From assembly GCA_022578605.1 (NCBI GenBank), contig MU394068.1, positions 248,001 to 312,000 on the forward strand: a stretch of 64,000 nucleotides of DNA, read 5' to 3'. Shown one piece after another: positions 3,732 to 33,763 of the stretch. Source of the DNA: Camillea tinctor. Taxonomy: Eukaryota; Ascomycota; Sordariomycetes; Xylariales; Xylariaceae. A program made the position numbers and the translations under genes. Positions within the stretch are counted from its first letter, which is position 1; each line of letters starts with the position of its first letter. Under the pieces are notes generated by a model. It saw only the letters and a program-made list of their open reading frames with translations. It had not been told where the DNA came from and did no database searches.

Positions 3732-4990
3732 AGCAAAGGTTGATTCCCGTATGTTGAGGCGAGAAGGGCACAGTGATGATTGTTACAATATAAAATATCT
3801 TTATATGTTCCTGACGTGCTGACGAAGTAGAGGCAACTAAGTTGATTGAGAAGAAGTAATTGGCAAGTTACTTGACCTGTTCATCAGGTACTAGGGGTCC
3901 CTTATATAGATAGACTGAGGGTCTATGCTTTCACATTCAATGGGTTCTTCCATGGAATAAATCTATTTTTCTGTTTGCTACCTAATTATCTATTGAATGG
4001 CGGGTAACTCCAGACCCACAAGCCGTGGATGAATCGAGGGTTATAAGCTTATTAACAGTTTCTAGGTTGAAGTAATGAAAGCCCCGGCACATTCCATACT
4101 ATATGTGGGAAGAACACCTACTTGTGATTGTTGTTATAATACGAAAGACTAGGGTTAAAACAATGACTATTCAATGGTAGCTCTCTGCAGACTCAATAAT
4201 CTAAAAGGTGGCGGAGTTACTTCAAACTAGATATTAATTCTCCTTTGTATATTGAACTCTAACATCATGTCTGGGATAGGAATGTACTAGTAAACCTGAT
4301 TCTCAGAATACGGAATAATCAACAATGTCACTTTAATACATGTGAGCGAAGTATAGGTACTAAGATAGGAAGCTATAAGTTATGTGGACTTATACAACTA
4401 CCTAGAGTTTAGTTGCTTCTATTCCGCCAATTCCTCGTCGAAATATTCGTACTATGAGTTGCCCTTATTAATCGTTGGCTGTATACCTTTTGGACTATGA
4501 GACATGTCAGATGCTAACTACTTAGTTAGACTGGCTTTTATTGACAAACGCCTTTAGCAAAATCAATGATTTAGAAAAATTATTAAATTGCATTTATTTT
4601 CCTGTAACTACCTGTAGTCAACTTATTTTAGAGTTATGGTATATTCTAGGATTCATTGATCAGTGACGTGATAGGATATGTCAATCTCCCTGCGTGATTA
4701 AATTTGGCATTGATACTGCCTGTCATTAGTTGTATATTACTCTTCACCTGAAACCTATCCTTGGTGAGCGTAGAGGTAACCTAAAGATTTTTCAGTGACC
4801 AAACGAGTTTCTATATTGTATAAGGAAAGACAACTATTCGTATCTTCCATCTAATCTGAATACTAGGGATGGGATAATAGGACCTGATAGCAACAAATGA
4901 CATTTATACTGACGAGGAAAAGAAATGATTGAACCACAAAAATGGGATATACACATGAGGGAAAGGAAAATCAATCAAGAAAATTAAAAG

Positions 4991-5000
4991 AAAAAAAAAA
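4991..5000 (-). terminator. Pol III T-run terminator of tRNA-Lys
   Basis: A run of ten T on the minus strand is the first stretch of four or more T downstream of the tRNA-Lys 3' end. It is the likely RNA polymerase III stop, giving a trailer of roughly 47 nt. Confidence 0.7.
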
Positions 5001-5016
5001 GAAGGATTTCGAGGCT

Positions 5017-5034
5017 CTCGCTGTAACCAGCGAG
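5017..5034 (-). other. Hairpin in tRNA-Lys trailer
   Basis: A perfect 7-bp inverted repeat (CTCGCTG / CAGCGAG) with a four-base loop lies between the tRNA 3' end and the T-run, so it should be part of the primary transcript. Its role is unknown. It may simply protect or delay processing of the 3' end. Confidence 0.5.
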
Positions 5035-5047
5035 GCACCGGGAATTG

Positions 5048-5181
5048 AGCCCGATGCGGGGGTCGAACCTAGGAAGAGATGTTAACATGCTGCCGAACTG
5101 AACGTGCAAGCTTGGAATTCGTGACTTACCCGCAACCTTGAGATTAAGAGTCTCACGCTCTACCGATTGAGCTAACCGGGC
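5048..5181 (-). tRNA. tRNA-Lys(CUU), interrupted in the T-arm
   Basis: Read on the minus strand, the gene starts GCCCGGTTAGCTCAATCGG and, minus the insert at 5069-5129, folds into an exact 73-nt cloverleaf. Acceptor GCCCGGT pairs with ATCGGGC (one G-U), D-stem GCTC pairs with GAGC, and anticodon stem TGAGA pairs with TCTCA around loop CTCTTAA, with anticodon CTT at 5148-5146. T-stem GCGGG pairs with CCCGC around loop TTCGACC, and the discriminator is T. The A-box (TAGCTCAATCGG) and B-box (GGTTCGACCCC) are both intact, so Pol III transcription is plausible despite the longer A-to-B spacing. No CCA is encoded, as expected for a eukaryote. The odd feature is the position of the interruption. There is no insertion at the usual 37/38 intron site. 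Confidence 0.88.
5069..5129 (-). other. 61-nt spliceosomal-like intron within tRNA-Lys
   Basis: The insert begins GTAAGT directly after GCGG of the T-stem and ends in ATCTCTTCCTAG directly before GTTCGACC. It contains TGTTAAC ending 12 nt upstream of the AG-proximal end, close to the fungal branch-site form. Its length falls in the range of the protein-gene introns in this window (about 47-87 nt). Exact removal regenerates the T-arm. A GT is present at both boundaries, so a small target duplication is also possible. Splicing is inferred and not shown. Confidence 0.72.
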
Positions 5182-7391
5182 TTGAAGCTGTCGGTTGAAG
5201 AACAGTTCCCAATTACGCTACTTAGACAAAATCCTGGTTGAGAAGAGAAGTTTTTTTTCTTCCACTTGGCCCACTCTGACTCAAACACCGGGTGAAAACC
5301 CGAACCTTGGTCGGGGACGATTGACGAGAGCTTCAGAAAAAATTTACCATGGTTCCACTTAATACACTCTAAGAAGAGGTAGACGGTGGTGCTAGGGTTA
5401 GGTTAGTTTGCTGTTACGTTGTGATTGTCAAGTGAATGGATTGCGCGCTGTACATACATGATGACCCCTGATTTCACATAACGCCACAGAATGAGTACAT
5501 ATATAAGTGGATTACCACTAAAAAACAAAGATGGTTCCAATAATAGATGCTCATAATTGAAAACATGCTTATAGTCTTGTGTGTACCCTGGCTTGTATAT
5601 GTCCTTTGTGGTTTAAATGTTACTTATAAACACATGTGGTTGGTTTTATGTCTACTTATTATCACCTCTTTATTATATCTTGGAAGCCCGGGATAGTGGT
5701 CAAGGTAAACCCAAGGACAGGATGTTTTGAGATGTAGGTTAACTGTATTTTGTAAGGTTAACTTTTATCGAATCATCGACAAGAATATTGGGGTGCCAAG
5801 AAGACGAGGGAACTTAGAAAGGTGGCCTTGTCTATAGGTCTACTGTACACCGCTCGCTACCTAGGTAAGTAAATATCCTCCTATCGCTGCTTTTGTTATA
5901 TTGCCAATACTATGTAAATTCATGTACAAAAGCGAGGACTATAACCCTTGAGTTTATAGAGGGGCAGAGACAATAACCGGATGACAAAACACATATTCAA
6001 GGTAATAATTGATAAACAAGCCTCTTCCAACAACTTAGCTTTTCGAATGTAAGGTAAAACAAGAACATTTTGACTGCTACTGTTGCCTTCATAGAACCCA
6101 CAATATCTATGCCGAGTTGACCGAGATGAGTTTGATATAGTAGCGGTAAGGAGGTTTTCAGATTAGACAAATTACCAGATTCACCAATAGGCACTTGTAA
6201 AGGGCGATTGACTAGCATCTTACGTTAGCTTGAGTGCGGGTCTATATCGTACGGTTTATATAGGCCGTGGGGAATATGATCTGCAACGGAAGCAGTAGTT
6301 GTTAAAGACAACCTCGAATTCCTTCTGTTGGCCATTATACTACCTACTTATACATATAAGATCGGGACCGATAGCTCCTGTGTTAGTTCACTGATCAACC
6401 TCTAGGTGTGAAAGGACACTGCATTTTGCAGGATCAGCCAGATGAAAAAATATAATATTAACAAAAGTACATCCTAACGCAGAGAGCAGTAACGTAATAT
6501 AAGCGATCCTACCGATATCAGAATTCATATTGGTAGATATAGGAATCAAAAATGACAAATGCACCCTATATCTCAGTATCCCATTCTATATACGATTTAA
6601 CATCTAGTTTCTATAGAAGTCTTGACATCATCGTGGGTATGATCTCCCGCCGCGACTTGGTTGCCTCTCTGGCTATAGGACTTTAGTGATAGAGACACTA
6701 CATAAATCCATCGGTAAAGAACACGATATGATTGGTCGTAAAATACTATTCTGTTCTACACCAAGATACCCCCGCCCCTGTCAACGTCTGCAGGGACTAT
6801 ACCTTTCTATATACCCCTTTAAGAAAGAAGGGCATATGACCAAAATGGGAGCTCCCTCCCGTCGCCGCAGTGCAATTCCCGTCCTTGGCCTATCAAATCG
6901 ATACATGGATGCCACGAGTGAGGCAGGCATACCGTTCATCCGCCAAGGGAGGTTATGTAGGTTTGCAATAGACAAATGTTTCTCTTCCACGAGTGAGAGC
7001 GTGCTTAACCTCGTCACGCGATTGTCATGCAGAAAAGAGGACTAATTAGCACACTTCTTATCTCAACGTGCACCAACCAACGTGCCCATTCAGTATTATA
7101 TGCAGAATCGTAAGGTGAGTCCATTATAACCCCCCTTTCGCCCCCGATCTCTTCAATCTGTAATTCGTTATACCTGTAGGTTTCACTTTAGGAAAGACAT
7201 ATTACAAGAGATTCGAGTCAATGGCTATATATTATATTATGAAATATTAAGTACATAAATAACTAGTTTTTTAGTAGCAGATTTTATGTATAAAAAGAAC
7301 ACACGCAAGGGGTATATCTCCTGCCGGCCTTCACCTAGTATACATATCGCGTAACATCGTGACATATTACATACATACGTGCACCCCTATT
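5182..7391. other. AT-rich gene-poor spacer
   Basis: This stretch holds no gene that I recognise. A short reading frame at 5997-6218 is listed separately as a possible retroelement relic. An ORF at 6686-7045 has no recognisable domain and is probably chance. The 3' ends of neighbouring transcripts may extend into it. Confidence 0.5.
5997..6218 (-). pseudogene. Possible retroelement integrase relic
   Basis: A short frame carries LGQLGIDIVGSMKATV followed by a hydrophobic, aromatic stretch and a Trp. This loosely resembles the start of a copia-type integrase core, where an Asp lies before a V/I-GP motif. An in-frame stop lies directly upstream and no flanking pol domains are visible. The match is weak and may be chance. 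Confidence 0.2.
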
Positions 7392-30482: not shown

Positions 30483-31768
30483 ATTGGTATAAGGTGATTC
30501 TACGTTATGCACAGGAGAGAGGTTTTTTTTATAGAACCCTATGATCTATAGTGTAGGGTTAGAGTCCTAAAAAATTAATGAATAAATAAAATGAATAATA
30601 TGTATAATGTTCAAGTTTCCTTGTTTCCACTATTTGGTCAATCGGTTTTCACGATAGCTGGTAAAGCCGGAGGACGATGAGTCTTCAGCCCAATCGATAA
30701 ATGATATGCCAAGCCCAGTGTAAGGCGAAGAAAAAAAAGTTGAGATGATAGGTCTCACTTAGTACTATAACCTACCTAACCTTAGTAGTTGTATGTACTA
30801 ACATGTAAGATTGTACCTAGCTAATCGCTTACACCAGCCTACGGAGTACTGCGCTACACTACACTAGACAACGAAAAAAAAAAGAGAGAGATAAAGAGTA
30901 AAAGTGGATCAACCATTAATGATTGAAAGCTCTAACCTACGCATGGGTTAGGCAACCTCTAGGTTCCTATACCTAGGTAGTGCCCTAAAGATTTACCTAA
31001 CCTAGAGACTATAGATGCGCTGACTACATACATAGTAGTACTTAACATACATATCTAGGTTAGTACATAGGTAGTCTTATCTAGTCTCGAATGTAATTCA
31101 GGTACCTAGTATGTACCTCCCAGGACGAGCTCGATAAAGCAGTTGGTGTTGGTAGTACAAGTATGATATGATACGGTACACTAAGAACCCGGTAACTATC
31201 TTACTATGTAGCTCTCTATCGTCCTTACTATTGCTATGTACATACCTACTATGTAGGTTACACTACTCCGTACAAAATCAAAGATCAAAGCTGAGACTCG
31301 GGGTTTAAAAGCAGGGTTGCACTGCAGCTCCCCCGCTCTCGTAACGCGCAATCACCTATGTATGTACTACTAAGAGTAAGAGAGTGTCAGCTTGCGACGC
31401 TTTTCTTCTCGCTTTTCTTCTGCAACACCCGCAAAGGGCTCGGGCAGCCTTCTCAGTCTTTTCTCTCTCGACAACTTTCTATTTCATCAAAACAGGCATA
31501 CTTTTTTTTGTTTGGCTTTATTGTTTATTGTTTATTCTTTTATGTTATTTTATTTTATCTCTGCAATGTATAGCATGCCTTTTATATAAATTGCAAATTC
31601 GTATCCTTGTCTTGTCTACAGCTCGAGCTGGACAACCCGATCATTCCGGCAGCTCTTCGTATTGTCCCATGTGCAGTGCGTACCTAAGCCCCGGCTCTGT
31701 CAATATTGTTTACCATAGACCCGGTGCAAAGACTCGTTGTCTATTCTATCCCAGGTAGACTTTTTACC
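30483..31768. other. Divergent promoter region, QTRT2 and LCCL gene
   Basis: The shared upstream region of two divergent genes. Several palindromic CCTAGGTA/TACCTAGG-type motifs occur between 30950 and 31110. A possible 5' UTR acceptor (TTGTCTACAG at about 31610) precedes the LCCL gene. Confidence 0.5.
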
Positions 31769-33763
31769 ATGAGCCATAGCCCCGAACCGCACAGTTCCCT
31801 CTCATCCGACCTAGACCTACAACAAACCCACGATCATCACCCCCATCCAAGCGAGATTGGCCTCACCCACCCAGACGCTCCAATTGATGACCGGGCGCCC
31901 CGTTTCGACGACGACTCGGGTAACGCGCCAACCCCGCGCTTTATGCAGGAAGAAGGAGTCTGGAAGAGGTGGAAATGGGTCCCTTATCCCGCCCGCAAGG
32001 TCGGTAGGGCGGTGGTCAGATGGATAAAGGGACCTCAGACCCCCAAGACCTGGAAGATCGAACCTCTGTTCCCCGTCATCCAACACGCCCCCATAAATCT
32101 ACTCAATCGGTTCCTGCCCAACCAGAGACCTCGATTCTGGCTTTTCATAGCCTACTTCGCCGCCTGGATCCTCGCCTTCTCGCTGGTGCTATGGCGGGGT
32201 CAGACTGCTTCCGATATAGACGGGTTCGGTCAGCCCTCGGTCATTAGTTGCGGCACCACCTTCTGGACTAAGGACAATGGCTGTGGGCTGGACGGGATGA
32301 ACTGCAGGCCCTTCAACGGATCATACTTCCCGTTTAGATGCCCCTCGAATTGCAATAGCTACCAGACCCTCAATCCCCGCGCGGTTGGTGTTCAGGAGGT
32401 AGTCTATGCGCCATTGATCATTGGAGGACCCGCCGACTCGGCCACTGCGGAGGACCCAGTCTATAGAGGTGACTCTTTTATATGTGGAGCCGCCATCCAC
32501 GCTGGTGTCGTCTCGGCCTCCCAGGGCGGCTGTGGTCTTTTATATCTAGTTGGCCAGTCTCCGAACTATACTGGTTCAGACCGGAATGGTATCACTAGCT
32601 ATGGGTTTGATTCCTACTTCCCGCTCTCCTTCACCTTCCAATCGGGGGTTGGATGCCAGGCACGAGATGATCGATGGAATTTGCTGGCCGTCTCCGTAGT
32701 CTTTACCGTGGTCTTGTCCCTATTCACTACATCGTCGGCAGCTTTTTTCTTTGCCACCTTTATCATCGCCTTCTGGCAGGTGGGCATGGCTTCGGATCGA
32801 CCCTCGGAGACCTACTCGGTCGGTGCGCTGTTCTCTGATATTCTCGGCAAGTTCCTTCCTGCTATGTTCTGTGCCTGGGTGATCTACGACAAGATGGGCG
32901 TTCGGCGTACCCTGAGGGGGTTGACTGCTCAAGTTGAAAAGACAGTGCTATGGCTAGGCGCCTGCTGGGTCGGGGCTCTAACCAACTATACTCTCGACTT
33001 TATCCCTATTCAGCGCCTGACTGGACACGACCTTGAACAACAGCCCGGGGCGAAGGCTGCACTTGCTATCATTGTTATTATCCTGGTAATTGTCGTTGCG
33101 TTCCAGATATGGTACTTCCGACAAGAGGGGCGGCTTGTACGGTATCTCAAACTATACGCGCTCTTCATTCTCGGTATTATTATTTCAGTGTCTCTGCCCG
33201 GTCTCAACCTGCGGATCCACCACTATATTCTCGCATTGTTGCTTCTACCGGGCACGAGTATGCAGACACGGCCTGCCCTGCTGTACCAAGGTGTCTTGGT
33301 AGGCCTCTTCATCAACGGCATCGCTCGATGGGGCTTTGATCCTTTCTTGCAGACTTCCGCGTCTCTGCAGAACGATGCTCAGCTCGGCTCGGCGCTGCCG
33401 CAGATTTTGGCGCCAGTCATCAACAGCAGCCTTTCGACCATTACCTTCCAGTGGGCATCGCCACCCGAGGTTCGATATGACGGCATCAGCATACTGGTGA
33501 ACGATGTTGAGAGGTTCCGTGGTTACTTTGATACGCCGGGCGACGACAGTTTCGTTTGGACTCGTGCGAACGGGTCCAGCTACAACGAGTACTTCCGCTT
33601 TGGCTATATGCAGGGGTCTGAGACGGAAGACTATACGAAGGCAGGTACCTGGACCGCCGAAATGGAATGGATCGAGATGGAATCGGGCGCCTCGAAGGTG
33701 CGCCGACGAAATGAAGACCCACCCGAGCTGATGCAGCGGTCGCGAGGGAAATATATATCATGA
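31769..33763 (+). CDS. LCCL-domain multi-span membrane protein
   Basis: A single exon of 664 residues from the ATG at 31769 (an upstream in-frame ATG at 31706 adds 21 unlikely residues). After a polar, acidic N-terminus comes a basic patch, then a first membrane segment at about 122-142 (FWLFIAYFAAWILAFSLVLW). A Cys-rich lumenal part contains the LCCL domain (about 158-260), marked by FICGAAIHAGVVSASQGGCG. At least six more membrane segments follow between about 310 and 540. This is a well-known fungal architecture. The LCCL fold is thought to bind lipid or polysaccharide, but the function of the fungal proteins is not established. Predicted N-glycosylation sites (NYTG, NSSL, NGSS) fit a secretory-pathway location. 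Confidence 0.88.
   Translation: MSHSPEPHSSLSSDLDLQQTHDHHPHPSEIGLTHPDAPIDDRAPRFDDDSGNAPTPRFMQEEGVWKRWKWVPYPARKVGRAVVRWIKGPQTPKTWKIEPLFPVIQHAPINLLNRFLPNQRPRFWLFIAYFAAWILAFSLVLWRGQTASDIDGFGQPSVISCGTTFWTKDNGCGLDGMNCRPFNGSYFPFRCPSNCNSYQTLNPRAVGVQEVVYAPLIIGGPADSATAEDPVYRGDSFICGAAIHAGVVSASQGGCGLLYLVGQSPNYTGSDRNGITSYGFDSYFPLSFTFQSGVGCQARDDRWNLLAVSVVFTVVLSLFTTSSAAFFFATFIIAFWQVGMASDRPSETYSVGALFSDILGKFLPAMFCAWVIYDKMGVRRTLRGLTAQVEKTVLWLGACWVGALTNYTLDFIPIQRLTGHDLEQQPGAKAALAIIVIILVIVVAFQIWYFRQEGRLVRYLKLYALFILGIIISVSLPGLNLRIHHYILALLLLPGTSMQTRPALLYQGVLVGLFINGIARWGFDPFLQTSASLQNDAQLGSALPQILAPVINSSLSTITFQWASPPEVRYDGISILVNDVERFRGYFDTPGDDSFVWTRANGSSYNEYFRFGYMQGSETEDYTKAGTWTAEMEWIEMESGASKVRRRNEDPPELMQRSRGKYIS

What the first reader, a model, noticed from the sequence alone, without database searches (positions are those of the whole stretch)
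5048..5181. tRNA-Lys gene with a spliceosomal-type intron in the T-arm
Seen: removing 61 nt (5069-5129) that start GTAAGT, contain TGTTAAC and end ATCTCTTCCTAG leaves an exact 73-nt tRNA-Lys(CUU) with all stems paired. Established: nuclear tRNA introns in eukaryotes sit at 37/38 and are cut by the tRNA splicing endonuclease. Introns elsewhere are known in archaea and some algae. Inference: either a spliceosomal intron has entered a Pol III gene, or a non-canonical endonuclease substrate has evolved, or the copy is dead. The intact A- and B-boxes and perfect stems argue against simple decay. I am not aware of a described case of this kind in fungi, but could not search.
Basis: partly seen in the sequence, partly recalled or inferred. 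Interest (0 to 1): 0.9.

Follow-up and report, generated by a model that had tools for sequence, protein, structure and literature searches.

The report
Lysine tRNA genes with spliceosomal-type introns
Three lysine tRNA genes of one fungus each carry, at the same point of the T-arm, a different short insert with the marks of an mRNA-type intron, which suggests that the spliceosome, and not only the usual tRNA-cutting enzyme, helps to make a tRNA there.

Summary
Removing 5069-5129 leaves a perfect 73-nt tRNA-Lys(CUU). The genome (a fungus near Biscogniauxia) shows seven tRNA-Lys(CUU) genes. Four are canonical, with an 8-nt intron at 37/38. Three (this one, C60, C66) lack it and carry 61-, 63- and 66-nt inserts at one bond, 52/53. 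These inserts hardly align with each other, yet each has GT...YAG ends, a near-consensus donor, and a branch-like site 13-15 nt from the end. Their exons differ at one base of 73, which keeps a G-U pair. All seven genes share a 3' trailer hairpin that covaries, followed by oligo-T. Divergent inserts between constant exons, plus compensatory changes, argue against decay. No bulge-helix-bulge forms at the junctions. The genome's U6 gene, also of Pol III type, has a spliceosomal-type intron. Best reading: real spliceosomal introns in working tRNA genes. This is inferred from DNA: no RNA data and no relative's genome could be examined. Spliceosomal introns in U6, U3 and rRNA are known. Ten searches of an open-access library showed none in a tRNA gene.

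The parts
5048..5181 (-). tRNA-Lys(CUU) gene with T-arm insert
   Evidence: RF00005, 51.8 bits, whole model 1-71
5130..5181 (-). exon 1, tRNA positions 1-52, anticodon CTT, no 37/38 intron
   Evidence: read; identical in the three T-arm-insert copies
5069..5129 (-). insert, 61 nt, spliceosomal-type intron between positions 52 and 53
   Evidence: a genome search with it found only this place
5124..5129 (-). donor GTAAGT
   Evidence: matches GTRWGT
5081..5085 (-). branch-like TTAAC (GTTAAC, one mismatch to RCTRAY), its A 13 nt before the insert's end
5069..5071 (-). acceptor TAG
5048..5068 (-). exon 2, 21 nt
   Evidence: one difference (C60, position 68) among the three copies
5163..5174 (-). 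A-box region (tRNA positions 8-19)
   Evidence: read; box positions recalled
5059..5069 (-). B-box GGTTCGACCCC, left contiguous because the insert's last G stands in for G52
   Evidence: read; box consensus recalled
5017..5034 (-). 3' trailer hairpin shared by all seven tRNA-Lys(CUU) genes
4991..5000 (-). oligo-T run (10 T), probable Pol III terminator

Best explanation
This is a working tRNA-Lys(CUU) gene transcribed by RNA polymerase III through the trailer hairpin to the oligo-T run. A U2-type spliceosomal intron between tRNA positions 52 and 53 (donor GTAAGT, branch TTAAC, acceptor TAG) is cut out by the major spliceosome. This restores the T-stem and T-loop, after which T-arm modification and end trimming can finish the tRNA. 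Two other genes of the genome have the same arrangement with different introns. Shown from sequence: the gene, the signals, the three-copy pattern, the constancy of the exons, the covariation of the trailer. Inferred: Pol III transcription, removal by the spliceosome, use in translation, the order of steps.
For: Three of seven tRNA-Lys(CUU) genes have an insert at the same bond. All three inserts have GT..YAG, and each departs from GTRWGT/RCTRAY at one base only. The branch A is 13, 15 and 15 nt from the end, against a published range of 6-36 nt for fungal introns and a mean of 15 for fungal U3 introns (PMC5832005, section 11). Interiors align no better than many shuffles for two of three pairs (62 and 156 of 500; the third 9 of 500), while 72 of 73 exon bases agree in all three copies. 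The spliced C18 and C66 sequences equal the canonical mature sequence. The trailer helix has changes on both sides at 5 of 7 pairs, and 0 of 500 shuffles reach its covariation score. The U6 gene of the genome has a 60-nt GTAAGT...CACTAAC...CACAG intron, and one U3 gene, read by eye, has GTGAGT...GCTGAC...TGCAG near its 5' end.
Against: No RNA evidence. Four canonical genes make the same tRNA, so these three may be dispensable. None of the three inserts fits both the donor and the branch consensus fully: C18 and C60 miss one branch base, C66 one donor base. The unspliced C66 precursor is not predicted to fold as a cloverleaf. Trailers give a mixed history: C18 is nearest to canonical copies, C60 to C66. 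The pattern read backwards gave 3 chance places against 4 real ones, so that pattern alone is not specific; it is the tRNA exons that make the three genes stand out.
Confidence: 0.85

Rival explanations
1. Dead or non-translational copies. The tRNA parts remain only as Pol III or TFIIIC sites or by recent copying, and the insert is never removed.
For: Intact canonical copies exist. A review says that T-arm insertions in eukaryotes mostly sit in one of many synonymous genes and are supposed to be pseudogenes (PMC4090602, passages). No expression data.
Against: Three copies, not one. Exons outside the A- and B-boxes are equally constant and the one change keeps a G-U pair. Inserts hardly align, so copying is not recent. 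Gene conversion from canonical copies would be expected to bring in their 8-nt intron, which is absent. C60 and C66 differ in the trailer by two compensatory pairs. No decayed relic was found with 5' or 3' patterns allowing 3 mismatches.
Confidence: 0.08
2. A tRNA-splicing-endonuclease intron at a non-canonical place, as in some archaea and the red alga C. merolae.
For: Such introns exist in archaea, C. merolae and nucleomorphs, some not forming a defined bulge-helix-bulge (PMC4090602 and PMC3978253, passages). In one register the four central positions pair 3, 4 and 3 of 4 here.
Against: No copy forms the whole motif in either register: inner helix 0-1 of 3 pairs, outer helix 1-2 of 3. The conserved features are GT, YAG and the branch site, which that enzyme does not need (recalled).
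Confidence: 0.04
3. A very small degenerate group I intron, as described for fungal rRNA genes (56-81 nt).
For: Similar length (PMC3160393, abstract); each insert ends in G.
Against: Group I introns follow a U at the end of the 5' exon (recalled); here the exon ends in G in both possible registers. Down to E 10 the Rfam scan of 4850-5350 listed only the tRNA and a sub-threshold snR64 match outside the gene.
Confidence: 0.01

Closest known systems
Spliceosomal introns in fungal U6 snRNA genes (and U3 snoRNA genes)
   Same: Short GT-AG intron with branch site in a small structured RNA; U6 is a Pol III gene too. This genome's own U6 has one. U3 and U6 were called the only small structured RNAs known to be often interrupted by an intron (PMC5832005, passages).
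   Different: Here the host RNA is a tRNA, which has its own splicing system; the intron breaks the T-arm, and paralogues carry a different intron type at 37/38.
Spliceosomal introns in ascomycete nuclear rDNA
   Same: Spliceosomal introns in a transcript not made by Pol II; yeast can remove one from rRNA (PMC8527467, passages).
   Different: Pol I and rRNA there; probably Pol III and tRNA here.
Non-canonical tRNA introns of archaea, nucleomorphs and Cyanidioschyzon merolae
   Same: Introns in the T-arm of tRNA genes (PMC4090602, PMC3978253, PMC9602550, passages).
   Different: Those of archaea and C. merolae are tied to bulge-helix-bulge motifs and the splicing endonuclease; nucleomorph ones are 3-24 nt. 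Here 61-66 nt with GT-AG and branch sites, and no bulge-helix-bulge.
Canonical eukaryotic tRNA intron at 37/38
   Same: Four sister tRNA-Lys(CUU) genes have one of 8 nt and the same mature product.
   Different: Other position, length and signals. Among the seven genes no gene has both types.

Membership tests
U2-type spliceosomal intron | GT and AG ends, donor near GTRWGT | tested here: met
   3 of 3 inserts; donor mismatches 0, 0, 1
U2-type spliceosomal intron | branch site near RCTRAY, 6-36 nt before the acceptor | tested here: met
   mismatches 1, 1, 0; distances 13, 15, 15 nt; consensus from PMC5832005 section 11
U2-type spliceosomal intron | sequence between the signals free to change while exons stay | tested here: met
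   interiors 9, 62 and 156 of 500 shuffles as good; exons 1 difference in 73
U2-type spliceosomal intron | removal by the spliceosome through a lariat | not testable with these tools
   no RNA data
Functional tRNA-Lys(CUU) gene | complete paired cloverleaf with CUU anticodon after removal of the insert | tested here: met
   C18 and C66 identical to the canonical mature sequence
Functional tRNA-Lys(CUU) gene | A-box, B-box and oligo-T terminator | tested here: met
   boxes read (consensus recalled); T-run of 5 or more starting at +39 to +48 in 7 of 7 genes
Functional tRNA-Lys(CUU) gene | transcribed, processed and charged | not testable with these tools
   no expression data
Endonuclease-type tRNA intron | position 37/38 | tested here: not met
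   52/53 in 3 of 3
Endonuclease-type tRNA intron | bulge-helix-bulge at the junctions (needed for other positions in archaea and C. merolae) | tested here: not met
   central helix up to 3-4 of 4, but inner 0-1 of 3 and outer 1-2 of 3
Group I intron | U at the end of the 5' exon (recalled) | tested here: not met
   exon ends in G in both registers (sequence)
tRNA pseudogene | decay of the tRNA body | tested here: not met
   1 difference in 73, pair kept as G-U
Introner-type mobile intron (recalled family) | near-identical copies at many places | tested here: not met
   C18 insert found once in the genome; C60 and C66 inserts were not searched

The most novel reading that the evidence does not exclude
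In this fungal lineage the spliceosome is a standing tRNA-maturation enzyme. A spliceosomal intron was reverse-spliced into the T-arm of a mature tRNA-Lys whose own 37/38 intron had already gone; the product was reverse-transcribed and recombined into the genome. That would explain in one step why the T-arm-intron genes lack the anticodon intron. The state has lasted long enough for three introns to lose nearly all resemblance, so part of the supply of a decoding tRNA depends on pre-mRNA splicing.
Probability: 0.3. Interest if true: 0.95.

Novelty: new variant of a known kind. Interest (0 to 1): 0.88.

Why it matters
Nuclear tRNA introns are held to belong to one system: position 37/38, splicing endonuclease, ligase. 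A tRNA gene that needs the spliceosome would break that rule and show that spliceosomal introns can settle in a Pol III gene other than U6. It would give a natural test of how the spliceosome handles a short, strongly folded Pol III transcript. It also bears on how introns arise: the two intron types exclude each other among the seven genes, as expected if the new intron entered a mature tRNA. And it warns that standard tools miss such genes: ARAGORN reported none of the three, and the genome-wide RF00005 search listed two of the three, one of them only as a 55-nt match.

Tried and rejected
Endonuclease substrate: looked for a bulge-helix-bulge in both registers of the three copies; the whole motif is absent, though the central positions pair 3, 4 and 3 of 4 in one register. 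Group I intron: the exon-end U is missing. Mobile introner: the C18 insert has no second copy; the C60 and C66 inserts were not searched. Pseudogene: no decay seen.

Other T-arm introns in any tRNA. GGGTNNGT..YAGGTTCRANNCC gave 4 places (backwards control: 3): our three and one other. GTRAGT..AGGTTCRANNCC gave 9 (backwards control: 2), of which 2 are ours; the C66 donor GTTAGT lies outside that pattern. None of the other 8 places reached Rfam's tRNA cut-off. Introns at other tRNA positions were not looked for. The list of 59 tRNA matches is not the full set: 63 of 1,531 candidates were scored.

Relatives: an exact pattern of exon 1 plus donor gave 0 in viral contigs and 0 in prokaryote genomes. 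These collections are not fungal, so this says nothing about relatives.

History from trailers: C18 differs from three canonical copies (C1, C47, C48) at 5-6 of 39 and from C22 at 17; C60 and C66 differ from each other at 5 and from the canonical ones at 14-18. This does not give one simple duplication history. A similarity of 60 upstream bases between C18 and C66 (4 of 500 shuffles; one of 15 comparisons) was not followed.

mRNA introns of the genome: one window gene (CSE1-like by my recollection of the yeast protein) was read by eye around six gaps between reading frames. Several look like GTATGT..TCTAAC..CAG or GTATGG..GCTAAC..TAG. This is an impression, not a measured consensus; no genome-wide mRNA intron profile was made.

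Papers that turned out not to bear on it: PMC4494063 and PMC10161547 (passages).

Full report
What is there. The tRNA lies on the minus strand, window 5181..5048. Rfam's tRNA model matches it end to end with 51.8 bits, with the break in the T-arm. On the minus strand, exon 1 is 52 nt (5181..5130), the insert 61 nt (5129..5069) and exon 2 21 nt (5068..5048). Without the insert the 73-nt sequence is predicted to fold as a full cloverleaf with anticodon CTT. The insert begins GTAAGT, ends CTCTTCCTAG, and has TTAAC with the A 13 nt before its end. ARAGORN reports nothing here.

Where it comes from. The window is part of a 44.7-Mb, 154-contig assembly. A window protein (31706-33763, LCCL domain) is 84% identical to one of Biscogniauxia mediterranea; the other listed relatives (118 of the 120 rows shown, of 1,307 matches) reach at most 72%, the best of them mostly Xylariales. 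The organism is probably a xylarialean ascomycete near Biscogniauxia; its species is not known.

The gene family. A 39-nt exon-1 pattern spanning 37/38 without an intron, up to 3 mismatches, finds three places: this one (C18), C60 and C66, all exact. A 31-nt 5' pattern and a 22-nt 3' pattern, each up to 3 mismatches, find the same seven places. Four of the seven (C1, C22, C47, C48) are canonical, with an 8-nt intron at 37/38. The other three lack that intron and carry inserts of 61, 63 and 66 nt at the same bond, 52/53. Spliced C18 and C66 equal the canonical mature sequence. C60 differs at position 68, C to T, which turns a G-C pair into G-U.

Why this is more than decay. The interiors of the inserts align no better than many shuffles for two pairs (62 and 156 of 500) and only weakly for the third (C18-C60, 9 of 500). 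In blast among the seven loci (E 1e-3), matches that involve a T-arm-insert copy begin at the tRNA's first base or one base before it, and end within about 80 nt after the tRNA; three canonical copies share about 27 bases more upstream. So the copies are old enough for inserts and flanks to have turned over, while 72 of 73 exon bases agree in all three. All seven genes share a 3' trailer with a hairpin, and a T-run starts at +39 to +48. For comparison, 56 other tRNA calls had a median distance to four Ts of 11 nt; ARAGORN's calls include some doubtful ones. On the seven trailers the 7-pair helix has changes on both sides at 5 pairs, 95.9% of 49 cells paired, and a covariation score reached by 0 of 500 shuffles; 'further pair types' was not unusual (75 of 500). 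Slid versions of the helix lose the signal. Related rows can inflate the shuffle test. But C60 and C66, both with T-arm inserts, differ by two compensatory pairs (alignment). This points to selection on RNA made from these genes.

Why the spliceosome. All three inserts have GT and YAG ends; the donors are GTAAGT, GTGAGT, GTTAGT; the branch-like sites TTAAC, CTGAC, CTAAC have the A 13, 15 and 15 nt from the end. C60 and C66 each hold one further, weaker branch-like match. A study of fungal U3 introns gives GTRWGT, RCTRAY, YAG and 6-36 nt, mean 15 (PMC5832005, section 11). Each insert departs from donor plus branch consensus at one base. Of 400,000 random segments per insert 52, 62 and 42 do as well; thresholds were chosen after seeing the inserts. 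A bulge-helix-bulge is not formed: inner helix 0-1 of 3 pairs and outer 1-2 of 3 in all copies and both registers, although the four central positions pair 3, 4 and 3 of 4 in one register. The one U6 gene detected has a 60-nt intron GTAAGT...CACTAAC...CACAG with GTTCGAATC inside, and an oligo-T end. Two U3 genes were found; one, read by eye, has GTGAGT...GCTGAC...TGCAG near its 5' end, and the second was not examined for this.

How it most likely works. Pol III is recruited by the A-box and B-box. The B-box stays contiguous in the DNA because the insert's last G stands in for G52 (box consensus recalled). The precursor ends after the trailer hairpin. In the predicted folds of unspliced C18 and C60 the acceptor, D, anticodon and T-stems already form, with the insert in an enlarged T-loop, which would bring the splice sites together; unspliced C66 is not predicted to fold so. 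The spliceosome then removes the insert. T-arm modification should follow splicing: in C. merolae the U55 enzyme did not act on pre-tRNA with a T-arm intron (PMC9602550, passages). Splicing and the order of steps are inferred.

Origin. The two intron types exclude each other (4 genes with 37/38 only, 3 with the T-arm only). This fits reverse splicing into a mature tRNA, but also an ancestor without the 37/38 intron. The trailers group C18 with canonical copies and C60 with C66. So one gain followed by exchange of trailers, or two gains at one site, both remain open.

What is known. [quoted passage not shown] merolae as the exceptions (PMC4090602, passages). The U3 study calls U3 and U6 the only small structured RNAs then known to be often interrupted by an intron (PMC5832005, passages). 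Spliceosomal introns in ascomycete rDNA are described, and yeast removes one from rRNA (PMC8527467, passages). In the passages seen, the tRNAscan-SE 2.0 paper handles non-canonical introns for archaea (PMC8450103). Ten searches of an open-access library listed no paper whose title or abstract start reports a spliceosomal intron in a tRNA gene. Most hits were seen only as listings, most subscription papers are not in the library, and the main paper on fungal U6 introns (Canzler 2016) was not held.

Limits. No RNA data, no fungal relatives, a partial tRNA list. The case rests on one genome, but on three separate loci within it.

Noticed in passing
L064 (C4:354389), L079 (C19:320422), L080 (C22:322615): A short repeat of about 70 bp with near-complementary ends (GGTGAGCTTAATAGTAAG ... 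CTTACTATTAGCTCATC) and a B-box-like GGTTCGATTCC inside; looks like a small transposon remnant. Seen at three places through.
   Followed up: partly
L057 (C3), L060 (C44), L061 (C147); also downstream of the tRNA-Lys in L023: A low-scoring tRNA-like family with a shared 3' trailer, perhaps a tRNA-derived SINE; a similar T-arm-like stretch lies downstream of the canonical tRNA-Lys of C47.
   Followed up: no
L012 (C48:182405-182476): ARAGORN reads this tRNA as Ala with anticodon GGC, unusual for a eukaryote by recollection; a G3-U70 pair can be read, and the body looks Gly-like to me.
   Followed up: no
L039, L040, L041 (tRNA-Tyr): The three tRNA-Tyr genes also have a hairpin-like 3' trailer (CAACCTTG...CAAGG) before the T-run, so trailer hairpins are not unique to tRNA-Lys(CUU).
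   Followed up: no
L047 (C55), L048 (C20): tRNA-Arg(ACG) and tRNA-His(GTG) genes lie head to tail a few bases apart with no T-run between them, so perhaps are transcribed together; one pair lies near a U3 gene.
   Followed up: no
L068 1501-1660 (C10:489447-489606): The U6 gene has a spliceosomal-type intron just after GAGAAGAT, with a B-box-like sequence inside the intron.
   Followed up: partly
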